A stretch of 64,000 nt of DNA from Methylophilus sp. 13 (GTDB taxonomy: Bacteria > Pseudomonadota > Gammaproteobacteria > Burkholderiales > Methylophilaceae), in contig NZ_JADKYR010000003.1 of NCBI RefSeq assembly GCF_015354335.1, forward strand, positions 434,001 to 498,000, written 5' to 3'. Shown here piece after piece: positions 52,339-54,931 of the stretch; the first letter of the stretch is position 1, and each line of letters starts with the position of its first letter. Under the pieces are notes generated by a model. The model was not told the DNA's origin, searched no databases, and saw only the letters and a program-made list of their open reading frames with translations. A program made the position numbers and the translations under genes.

Positions 52339-52791
52339 TTAATGCTTTTTGTAGCGCCGCTCCAGCCAATGATCCAGCGAAGCCTTGCCTGCCCCGCAAA
52401 TCGCCAGCCAGGTAAATACGGCAAAGTAAGTCGCCTCCTCAAAGCCGAGCAAGGTTTCCAGCGAATCGATATCGGCCAGTTTTGCCGAAATAATCGCTAC
52501 CACCATCACCACCGCCAATGCCCCGCCACAAATACGCGTCATCAAACCCAGAATCAGGCCCAGCCCACCGAAAAACTCCCAGCCCGCCACAAATGGCGTC
52601 ATGAATTCTGGGAAAGGGATGCCCCAGCTTTGAAAGTTCTCAATAATGGCGGGTAGGTTATTCAGCTTGCCCCAGCCCGTGAGCATAAAGGTGTAGCCCA
52701 CCACGACGCGGGCGACCAACGGGCCCAGCCATTCAAAATGCGCAGCCACTTTTTTCGGCCAAGCGATCAATCCCTCAAACAAGATATGCAT
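52339..52791 (-). CDS. DoxX-family membrane protein (BufD-like)
   Basis: 150 residues from the ATG at 52791, preceded by AGGAGGAAACAC. Four hydrophobic helices ([79 protein letters not shown]). DoxX genes often end bufferin operons (bufD). It overlaps the end of the MNIO fusion gene by 17 bases. Likely an inner-membrane redox or quinone-linked accessory, by association only. Confidence 0.88.
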
Positions 52792-54505
52792 GTGTTTCCT
52801 CCTTTTGCAGATGAGTGGTGTCAGCCGCGGTAGCGTCAATCGTCGCCGCCACCTGCGTTGCGGCCAGCAAGCCGTTTCTCATCCATTTTGAAAAATAGGC
52901 CATGACCTCGGGGCCTGCTGCGTCATCCAGACCAGCTAACGCCTCGCCCACGGTCGCCCCGCCAAACAAGGTACTGAGTAATGCGAACTCCTGCGCCTCC
53001 AGCGTCATGCGCCAAACCACATCCTCATGGCGATACACCACCAGATACTCGTCAACGGCTTCGTCCATCGGCGTCGGCACCTCGTCCATCACGGCCTGAT
53101 AGTATGCATTCACACCGTGGCTAAAGTGTGCCAGTGATAATGCCGCCCTGGGCATCAGTTGCAAGTCCATCAATCCATCCGGCGTGAGGCCATGTAGCTG
53201 CGAAGCTTCCAGCACAGGCGTTTCAGCCGGGTCCATCATTTGTGCGACCAGCGTTTCCAACTGGCAGAGCGCATGGGCAAAACCATGTTTAGGCAGCGCA
53301 ATTTGAATAAACGCAGGCAGCTTAAGTGCAAAGCGGCCGATATTAAAATGGTCTGGTTGCACCGCCGCAATAAAATCCCACAGCAGCCGGTCAAAGACTG
53401 GCGGCGTTAAATAATGCGCCAACACCGGATAATCTTCGGCCACCACGTCAAACAAGCGGTAACGGTACGCCTCGGTATACACCGACAACTGTGCCTCTGG
53501 CACAAACTCGGCCTTGGCGCGTATCCACTCTGCCGGACGACTGTCCATGCGATCGCCCAGCACAATGGCTTGCTGTAAGTGGGTTTGCGCCTGCAGTAAA
53601 GACGGTTGCATGGCTGGGCTAGATGCCTCAACCGGCTTGGCTATGTCTGGCAAGGCATAGGCGCTAGCCTGGCTAGCCACTTGCCGGGCTTTCTCCAGCT
53701 CCGCGGCCAACACCGGAAATTCCGGGATCTGGTCATCCCACTCAATCATGGTATTCGGCACGCGGCCAGCCCGGTTCACCACATATTGGTACAGCCCCCA
53801 CACAGCCTCCGTCACATGGTCATCGTGGGTATCGACGATGTGACTGCCTTTGTTGCGGTGCCCCGAAAGATGCACCTGAATCACCCGCTCCATTGGCAAG
53901 GCATCCAGATAGGCTTGTGCATCCAGCCGGTGGTTGTAGCTCGTCACATAGACATTATTCACATCGAGCAGCAAATGGCAGTCCGCCGCTTGCGCCATGG
54001 CCGCAATAAACTCGGCCTCTGGAATGGTGGAATGCTTGAACTCCAGATAGGTAGACGGATTTTCGAGCGCGATTCTGCGGCCCAGCCTGTCCTGCACCTG
54101 GCAGATACGCTGCACCATATGCTTGAGCGACTCTTCGGTGTAGGGCAGCGGCAGCAAATCATGGGTATTTTTATGTGCCACGCCAGTCCAGCACAGATGA
54201 TCCGACACCCAGGCCGGTTGCACCCAGTCAATCAGCGCCTTGAGCTTGGTCAGGTATTCAGAATTCAATGCATCCACACTGCCGATGGACATCGACACAC
54301 CATGCATGACAATCGGGTATTGCTCTTTGATACGCGCCAGGTTGCGCTTGGGCTTGCCGTCGGTATCCATAAAATTTTCCGAAATAATTTCGAACCAGTC
54401 CACCGGTGGCTGATGTTCAAAAATATACGGATAGTGCGTGGGCCTGAGGCCCAGTCCAAAGCCCAGATGGGGTAATGCATTGGGTAAGGGATTGGTCAGC
54501 GGCAT
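52775..54505 (-). CDS. Fused MNIO (DUF692) - DUF2063 protein, BufB-BufC-like RiPP maturase
   Basis: 576 residues. Residues 1-275 are the multinuclear iron oxidase (MNIO/DUF692) TIM barrel with iron ligands His68, His103, His115, Glu148, Asp181, His212, Asp225, His227 and Glu255 in the usual order ([45 protein letters not shown]). After a linker (about 276-310), residues 311-550 match DUF2063, the precursor-recognition partner normally encoded as a separate gene. MNIOs modify Cys in bufferins, methanobactin and similar peptides. GCAAGGAGTGAGTTGTC precedes the ATG. It lies between the precursor and DoxX genes. Confidence 0.92.
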
Positions 54506-54577
54506 GACAACTCACTCCTTGCAAAGCAGCAGGGCCACTGCCCCGCCGCCTTGAGACGATTCAAGAAAATGACCAGC

Positions 54578-54847
54578 TTACTTACTGCCGTCCGTGGCGC
54601 ATGAACCATGCCCTTTACACGCATTCTTGCCATCACCGCCCTGGCCTTTACAGGAATTTTTGCCTTTGCATGCATGCTTCTCTTTACCGTCAGCAGTTTT
54701 GCAATTGGCCTTTTCCATCTTGGCGTTATCTTTGCCATTGCAGCCAGACTTGCCTTCATCCCCAGCAAATGCCGGGCTTGCACTCATCACCGTTGCAGTG
54801 AACAAACCTAACAATGCTGCGCTGGCCAATTTTTGAGTCGTTTTCAT
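54578..54847 (-). CDS. Bufferin-like RiPP precursor with Cys/Lys/Gly core
   Basis: 89 residues from the ATG at 54847 (TTAGGAGATAGT before it). A Sec signal peptide (MKTTQKLASAALLGLF..., cleaved near SPAFA-GD) leads to a 60-residue core with six Cys in repeats such as HACKGKNSCKG and NACKGHGSC, rich in Lys and Gly. This is the layout of bufferins, exported copper-binding peptides whose Cys are oxidised by the MNIO encoded next door (72 bases downstream). The particular C-K-G-x-x-S-C core differs from the EGKCG core of DUF2282 bufferins. Confidence 0.88.
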   Translation of the reverse strand: MKTTQKLASAALLGLFTATVMSASPAFAGDEGKSGCNGKDNAKMEKANCKTADGKEKHACKGKNSCKGQGGDGKNACKGHGSCATDGSK

Positions 54848-54902
54848 ACTATCTCCTAAGGATTCAATTAAAAAGTTAAACAGAAAATGTGTTCTGTCAC
54901 CC

Positions 54903-54931
54903 TTAGTCGAGGCAAGCAACGCGGCCTTACA
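54903..54931 (-). promoter_or_regulatory. Candidate ECF-sigma promoter of the bufferin operon
   Basis: On the minus strand TGTAAGG, 15 bases, then CGACTAA, resembling TGTAACC-N16-CGAA type promoters used by the ECF factors that control bufferin genes in other proteobacteria. It would start transcription about 50 bases before the precursor ATG. Confidence 0.4.

What the first reader, a model, noticed from the sequence alone, without database searches (positions are those of the whole stretch)
52339..54931. Bufferin-type RiPP operon with the MNIO and DUF2063 partner fused in one protein
Seen: precursor with signal peptide and six Cys, then a 576-residue protein holding MNIO (1-275) and DUF2063 (311-550) in a single reading frame, then DoxX. 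In known bufferin loci BufB and BufC are separate genes that form a complex; a fusion fixes a 1:1 ratio and could reveal how precursor is handed to the iron site. Inference: copper or other metal sequestration in the envelope.
Basis: partly seen in the sequence, partly recalled or inferred. Interest (0 to 1): 0.85.

Follow-up and report, generated by a model that had tools for sequence, protein, structure and literature searches.

The report
Fused copper-peptide maturation enzyme
A methanol-eating bacterium makes, as one protein, the enzyme and the helper that are thought to convert a small copper-binding peptide, where many bacteria make them as two; the fusion is real and appears to have arisen more than once in nature.

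Summary
On the minus strand lie an 89-residue Sec-type precursor with six Cys, a 576-residue ORF carrying a complete MNIO (BufB-type) domain plus a DUF2063-RRE (BufC/PME-type 1) domain, and DoxX. It is not an assembly artefact: the fused gene occurs in 10 genomes of the genus (Methylophilus) and in a Rickettsiales-labelled MAG. AlphaFold2 gives a confident model (pLDDT 91, pTM 0.86) whose halves match TglH and NGO1945.

The "fusion is exceptional" reading does not hold. In another family of the same order, 63 of 90 loci checked are fused, and isolated fusions occur elsewhere. A tree test rejects a single origin (AU p 1e-4, group named after seeing the tree). A 2009 paper had noted one DUF692-DUF2063 protein without interpretation; a 2026 preprint built the same fusion artificially (HvfB-HvfC) and found it more active than the co-expressed pair. 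The Methylophilus fusion belongs to another lineage than its family's own two-gene bufB.

Most likely function: one-chain Cys-to-thiooxazole maturase for an envelope copper-binding peptide. Fusion is shown; chemistry, metal and hand-over are inferred. New variant of a known kind, moderate interest.

The parts
54578..54847 (-). precursor gene (bufA-like), 89 aa, Sec-type N-terminus by eye, six Cys: C-N-G, N-C-K-T, then C-K-G repeats
   Evidence: translation; BufA2 NF050166 27.6 bits, below the cut-off of 60; similar precursor in 9 of 9 fused Methylophilus loci aligned
54903..54931 (-). conserved upstream box TGTAAG-N17-GACTAA, promoter-like (resemblance to ECF-sigma promoters is recalled, not tested)
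   Evidence: TGTAAG in 9 of 9 and GACTAA in 8 of 9 upstream regions (GACCAA in L004); exact match here; the pattern alone is not beyond chance (controls in those calls)
52775..54505 (-). fused bufBC gene, 576 aa, MNIO + DUF2063 + RRE-type domain
53675..54460 (-). MNIO (PF05114) domain, residues 16-277
   Evidence: BufB equivalog NF050167 369.6 bits, cut-off 310; TglH 8hi7_B Z 29.0
53600..53671 (-). interdomain linker, about residues 279-302, unstructured apart from a helical turn at 280-282
   Evidence: pLDDT about 70 for residues 281-300; variable in sequence
53306..53590 (-). DUF2063 (PF09836) domain, residues 306-400
   Evidence: 3dee Z 16.7 over 191 aa for residues 340-552
52850..53143 (-). 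RRE-type C-terminal domain, about residues 455-552
   Evidence: model secondary structure; lies within the 3dee match; boundaries inferred
52339..52791 (-). doxX, 150 aa, start overlaps the fusion gene by 17 nt
   Evidence: PF07681 77.2 bits; HvfX NF050144 70.5 bits, below the cut-off of 80; coordinates

Best explanation
A bufferin/captophorin-type operon (bufA-like precursor, fused bufBC, doxX) in a Methylophilus. Shown: one chain holds a complete MNIO barrel and a complete DUF2063-RRE partner, joined by a flexible linker of about 24 residues and conserved through a clade. Inferred: the DUF2063-RRE half captures the signal-peptide-bearing precursor in the cytoplasm and presents its Cys to the iron site of the attached barrel; partner contact keeps the iron cluster in its active mixed-valent state; Cys residues are oxidised, probably to 5-thiooxazoles, and the product is exported by Sec to bind Cu in the periplasm. 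The fusion does what the heterodimer does, but removes the weak-association step and fixes a 1:1 ratio.
For: Domain and family matches. Of 14 conserved Glu, Asp, His and Asn positions that I chose, 12 are identical in 14 of 14 fusions and two show only D/E swaps (E43 in one, D102 in two). N184 maps to HvfB N175, and D225 and H227 probably to HvfB D242 and H244, the last two with a two-residue offset in 3bww numbering (hand count). Two-domain model with pTM 0.86, halves matching TglH and NGO1945. Operon conserved. An engineered HvfB-HvfC fusion is active, more so than the co-expressed pair, and the partner is needed for the mixed-valent state (PMC13419390: passages, sections 17 and 24). A single origin of the fusion is rejected.
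Against: The precursor falls below the BufA2 cut-off and its Cys pattern is shifted. The HvfC equivalog model is not met (19.8 vs 142 bits). No regulator or copper gene was tied to the operon; the neighbouring genes were read only as ORFs. No experiment on this protein is known to me. The domain arrangement could not be superposed on the TglHI or MbnBC complexes with these tools.
Confidence: 0.78

Rival explanations
1. The fused gene is translated or processed into two proteins (internal start or proteolysis), so that function equals that of separate BufB and BufC and the fusion is incidental.
For: Flexible, low-confidence linker; a Met lies in the linker of the window protein and in 5 of the 8 other Methylophilus fusions.
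Against: Met is absent from the linker in 3 of 9 Methylophilus fusions (L005, L009, L010) and in L068, L080 and L081; GTG and TTG starts were not examined. The frame is kept open across clades.
Confidence: 0.12
2. The C-terminal half is a DNA-binding regulator, as the Pfam name and the 2009 structure paper suggest, and the fusion is a metal-sensing transcription factor.
For: PF09836 is named 'putative DNA-binding domain'; the NGO1945 paper argued for transcription regulation (PMC2954202, passages).
Against: DUF2063 proteins are now treated as MNIO partners (PMC12452194 sections 18 and 21); the precursor lies directly upstream.
Confidence: 0.04
3. Same enzyme, but the product serves another metal or stress (gold, mercury, oxidative or sulphur stress) rather than copper.
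For: Bufferin operons were also named gold-induced genes, and MerC and DoxX associations suggest other roles (PMC12452194 sections 14 and 21). The regulator of this operon is unknown.
Against: Characterised relatives bind Cu (same paper; PMC13097082 passages).
Confidence: 0.2

Closest known systems
Bufferin Buf2/Buf1 operons (bufA-bufB-bufC-doxX)
   Same: Sec-type Cys precursor, BufB-type MNIO, DUF2063-RRE partner, DoxX, same gene order
   Different: BufB and BufC in one chain; precursor lacks Buf2 Cys 2, has an extra CKG Cys and is below the BufA2 cut-off
Engineered HvfBC fusion (PMC13419390)
   Same: MNIO C-terminus joined to partner N-terminus, 1:1
   Different: Man-made, no added linker, oxazolin system of Haemophilus; here natural, with about 24 linker residues in the model
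Natural fused BufBC of another family of the host's order (this work)
   Same: Same domain order; profile-to-profile linker median 32 residues (range 18-102) against 32-37 in the Methylophilus clade and L068
   Different: One common origin rejected (AU p 1.3e-4); Buf1-like precursors by eye
MovX (MNIO with C-terminal RRE/winged-helix domain)
   Same: MNIO with a recognition-type domain in the same chain (as cited in PMC13419390 and PMC12452194)
   Different: No DUF2063 domain mentioned; other chemistry
TglHI and MbnBC complexes
   Same: Fold of the MNIO half (TglH Z 29.0, MbnB Z 26.9)
   Different: Two chains; MbnB and TglH reactions differ

Membership tests
MNIO (PF05114), BufB type | Pfam and NCBIfam BufB equivalog scores above cut-off | tested here: met
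   360.7 vs 25 bits; 369.6 vs 310 bits
MNIO (PF05114), BufB type | conserved iron-site region residues | tested here: met
   E39, H68, H103, E148, N149, D181, N183, N184, H212, D225, H227, E255 in 14 of 14 fusions; E43 and D102 with D/E swaps; which of them bind iron is partly recalled
PME-type 1 partner (DUF2063 + RRE) | PF09836 above cut-off | tested here: met
   43.4 vs 27.2 bits
PME-type 1 partner (DUF2063 + RRE) | fold of NGO1945 (3dee) including the C-terminal domain | tested here: met
   Z 16.7, rmsd 3.3, 191 aa, residues 340-552
HvfC subfamily of PME-type 1 | HvfC equivalog model NF050145 | tested here: not met
   19.8 vs 142 bits
Buf2 bufferin precursor (BufA2) | NCBIfam BufA2 score above cut-off | tested here: not met
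   27.6 vs 60 bits; no Pfam hit up to E 0.1
Buf2 bufferin precursor (BufA2) | six conserved Cys at the family positions | tested here: inconclusive
   six Cys, but C2 missing and one CKG Cys extra in the alignment with five Buf2-like precursors
Bufferin | Sec signal peptide on the precursor | tested here: inconclusive
   by eye: K2, hydrophobic core, PAFA/G site; no predictor was run
Bufferin | operon order precursor, MNIO, partner, often doxX | tested here: met
   gene order, with MNIO and partner fused
Bufferin | Cys-derived thiooxazoles and Cu binding | not testable with these tools
   needs mass spectrometry and metal titration

The most novel reading that the evidence does not exclude
MNIO-partner association is a recurrent bottleneck in thiooxazole-metallophore maturation, and bacteria have solved it at least twice, perhaps six times, by fusing bufB to bufC, often with a linker of similar length. 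The natural fusions are ready-made stoichiometric complexes that could show how a signal-peptide-bearing precursor is held back from Sec and fed Cys by Cys to the iron site.
Probability: 0.4. Interest if true: 0.65.

Novelty: new variant of a known kind. Interest (0 to 1): 0.5.

Why it matters
HvfB and HvfC bind each other weakly, and that weakness led others to build a fusion by hand to study the active iron state (PMC13419390). Natural, evolutionarily kept fusions, including one in the culturable Methylophilus methylotrophus, could give homogeneous 1:1 enzyme for structures with substrate, and show that the fusion is tolerated, possibly favoured, in vivo. Surveys that count MNIO and partner genes separately may miss or miscount such loci (inference).

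Tried and rejected
Assembly or frameshift artefact: rejected by 10 genomes with the same ORF. Fusion by simple joining of the family's own two-gene bufB and bufC: the AU test rejects placing the fused MNIOs with three stand-alone BufBs of the family (p 6e-5). G012 looked like a 39%-identical fusion, but it is two genes. All rows listed with open frames of 500 aa or more were fetched: 3 of 5 and 1 of 6 besides the host were fusions; G513, G461, G807, G582, G840 and G874 were N-terminal extensions or separate genes and G797 has no partner in that frame. G034:C66 (open frame 539) has no partner match. In the family of L080 the other long frames (G415, G949, G959, G960, G948) were separate genes, so that fusion stands alone there and a sequencing error is not excluded; L081 and L084 were not looked for in relatives, and L193 is a single branch. 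Shared regulator: the upstream box occurs once in the host genome, the control reading twice; with up to 2 mismatches the window has 2 matches against 1.73 expected by chance; it is not seen in the second MNIO locus of the host. So the box rests on conservation alone and no regulator is named. A viral contig scan confirmed none of 50 candidate stretches. Plasmid tblastn: the listed rows with annotation show two features each, and H9 is two genes. MNIO plus Methylophilus in papers: 0 hits. Sequence search of the DUF2063 half alone in the PDB gave only TFIIA chains at E 0.01 or weaker, read as chance. The alignments A3 and A4 were replaced. The first paper search ('bufferin') listed only papers on buffering.

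Full report
What is there. On the minus strand of the window lie, in order, a precursor gene (54578-54847, 89 aa, six Cys), a 576-aa ORF (52775-54505) and doxX (52339-52791). Between the precursor stop and the start of the 576-aa ORF are 72 nt with an AAGGAG ribosome site before the ATG; the doxX start overlaps the end of the ORF by 17 nt (by inspection). The 576-aa protein matches PF05114 at 16-277 and PF09836 at 306-400, both above cut-off, and the NCBIfam BufB equivalog (369.6 bits, cut-off 310), but not the HvfC equivalog (19.8 vs 142). The precursor reaches only 27.6 bits of the 60 required for BufA2.

It is real. The same single-frame fusion is in 9 of 21 same-genus genomes including the host's, 70-80% identical to the window protein, and in 10 of 187 genomes of the family, the tenth being another genome of the host's species. 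The other 23 family genomes with a DUF2063-half match have it at 20-26% identity in open frames of 133-310 aa. A scan of named genomes with two short peptide patterns confirmed 7 loci: five titled Methylophilus, including M. methylotrophus DSM 46235, one titled Methylophilaceae, and one contig of a pond MAG titled Rickettsiales (L068) with a 607-aa fusion and doxX. Whether that contig is correctly binned was not tested.

Structure. An AlphaFold2 model from 56 rows (14 fusions, 21 stand-alone MNIOs, 21 trimmed stand-alone partners; alignment) has mean pLDDT 90.8 and pTM 0.86. Between helix 263-278 and helix 303-319 there is only a turn at 280-282, with pLDDT about 70. The MNIO half matches TglH (8hi7_B, Z 29.0, 273 aa), 3bww (Z 27.6) and MbnB (7dz9_A, Z 26.9); residues 340-552 match the DUF2063-RRE protein NGO1945 (3dee, Z 16.7, 191 aa). 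N184 aligns with HvfB N175, and D225 and H227 probably with D242 and H244, residues essential in HvfBC (PMC13419390); the mapping is my hand count through 3bww. These three are kept in 14 of 14 fusions and 21 of 21 stand-alone rows.

How widespread. I checked one locus in each of 90 genomes: 63 have MNIO and partner in one open frame and 27 in different frames. 26 matching genomes were not examined. So fusion is common there, in at least 63 of 195 genomes, but not universal. The 12 loci with flanks (L122-L133) are all fused and each shows a Buf1-like Cys precursor upstream, judged by eye; L128 is cut by its contig end. Elsewhere, 222 of 369 class-level genomes and 145 of 398 phylum-level genomes had an MNIO match. 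Every listed row with an open frame of 500 aa or more was fetched, giving fusions in G293, G553, G419 and G844 besides the host. The match listings were cut, so these are lower bounds. By eye, G293 has a Buf2-like precursor, G553 two Buf1-like ones, and for G419 none was recognised.

Convergence. On a tree of 110 MNIO domains the label 'fused' needs 8 gains or losses, at least 6 forced by well-supported branches; the picture fits six separate fused groups and two re-splits. A first tree of 78 rows needed 5, at least 4 forced. In a 40-row tree, holding the Methylophilus, L068 and G844-family fusions together as one clade is rejected (log-likelihood 179 lower, AU p 1.3e-4), and so is holding the Methylophilus fusions with three stand-alone BufBs of their own family (136 lower, p 6e-5). 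I chose these groups after seeing the earlier trees, and L080 was left out of the first, so the p-values are not strictly a priori. The Methylophilus fusion groups with L068 and with two-gene systems from outside the host's class (L106, L107) whose bufB and bufC overlap by 4 nt. Horizontal acquisition is the likely explanation; the direction is unknown. Linkers between the two domain profiles are 32-37 residues in the Methylophilus clade and L068 and have a median of 32 (range 18-102) in the 63 others. In 61 two-gene pairs, BufB tail plus BufC lead has a median of 23 residues (range 15-68).

Precursor and promoter. The nine Methylophilus precursors are closely alike. Against five Buf2-like precursors (L011-L014, L080) they keep the first Cys, the CKT Cys, two CKG Cys and the last Cys, lack the second Cys and have an extra CKG Cys near the end. 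Upstream, TGTAAG is present in 9 of 9 and GACTAA in 8 of 9, 17 nt apart. The box lies at 54903-54931. The pattern by itself is not beyond chance: one match in the host genome against two for the control reading, and with 2 mismatches 2 in the window against 1.73 expected. It looks like an ECF-sigma promoter, but that is recollection and no regulator was tied to it.

Literature. PMC12452194 (sections 13, 14, 18, 19, 21, and 12 of 26 found passages) describes the order bufA-bufB-bufC and lists precursor fusions; in what I read it mentions no MNIO-partner fusion. PMC2954202 (passages) notes in 2009 that one of 216 DUF2063 proteins carries an N-terminal DUF692 domain. PMC13419390 (passages, sections 17 and 24) reports an engineered HvfB-HvfC fusion, more active than the co-expressed pair. 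Searches for a natural fusion listed no paper that, in the passages I read, analyses one; not every listed paper was opened. The library is open-access only, supplements were not readable, and the original bufferin paper was not seen, so I cannot say it is unpublished.

Verdict. The sequence observation is right and the functional reading is plausible, but the fusion is neither unique nor unrecorded. What is interesting is that it recurs, is kept through clades and mirrors a construct that enzymologists needed to build. Chemistry, metal and hand-over mechanism remain inferred from relatives.

Noticed in passing
L109 (host genome contig C8, 176500-185500; outside the window): A second MNIO locus in the same genome: a sigma-factor-like gene (180 aa, by eye ECF-type), a KEGSC-repeat (oxazolin-like) precursor, and separate MNIO (292 aa) and partner (250 aa) genes.
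   Followed up: partly
window 54903-54931 (minus): Conserved TGTAAG-N17-GACTAA box upstream of the precursor in nine Methylophilus genomes.
   Followed up: partly
L068 / L091: Fused bufBC plus doxX on a Rickettsiales-titled pond MAG contig; no Cys-rich Sec-type precursor recognised by eye in the 17 kb read.
   Followed up: partly
L011 and L013: Two other genomes of the genus carry lipoprotein-like Buf2-like precursors with expanded Cys repeats and separate bufB and bufC.
   Followed up: no
L174 and L177: Inside the fused clade of the second family two genomes have MNIO and partner in different frames: re-splitting or sequence errors.
   Followed up: no
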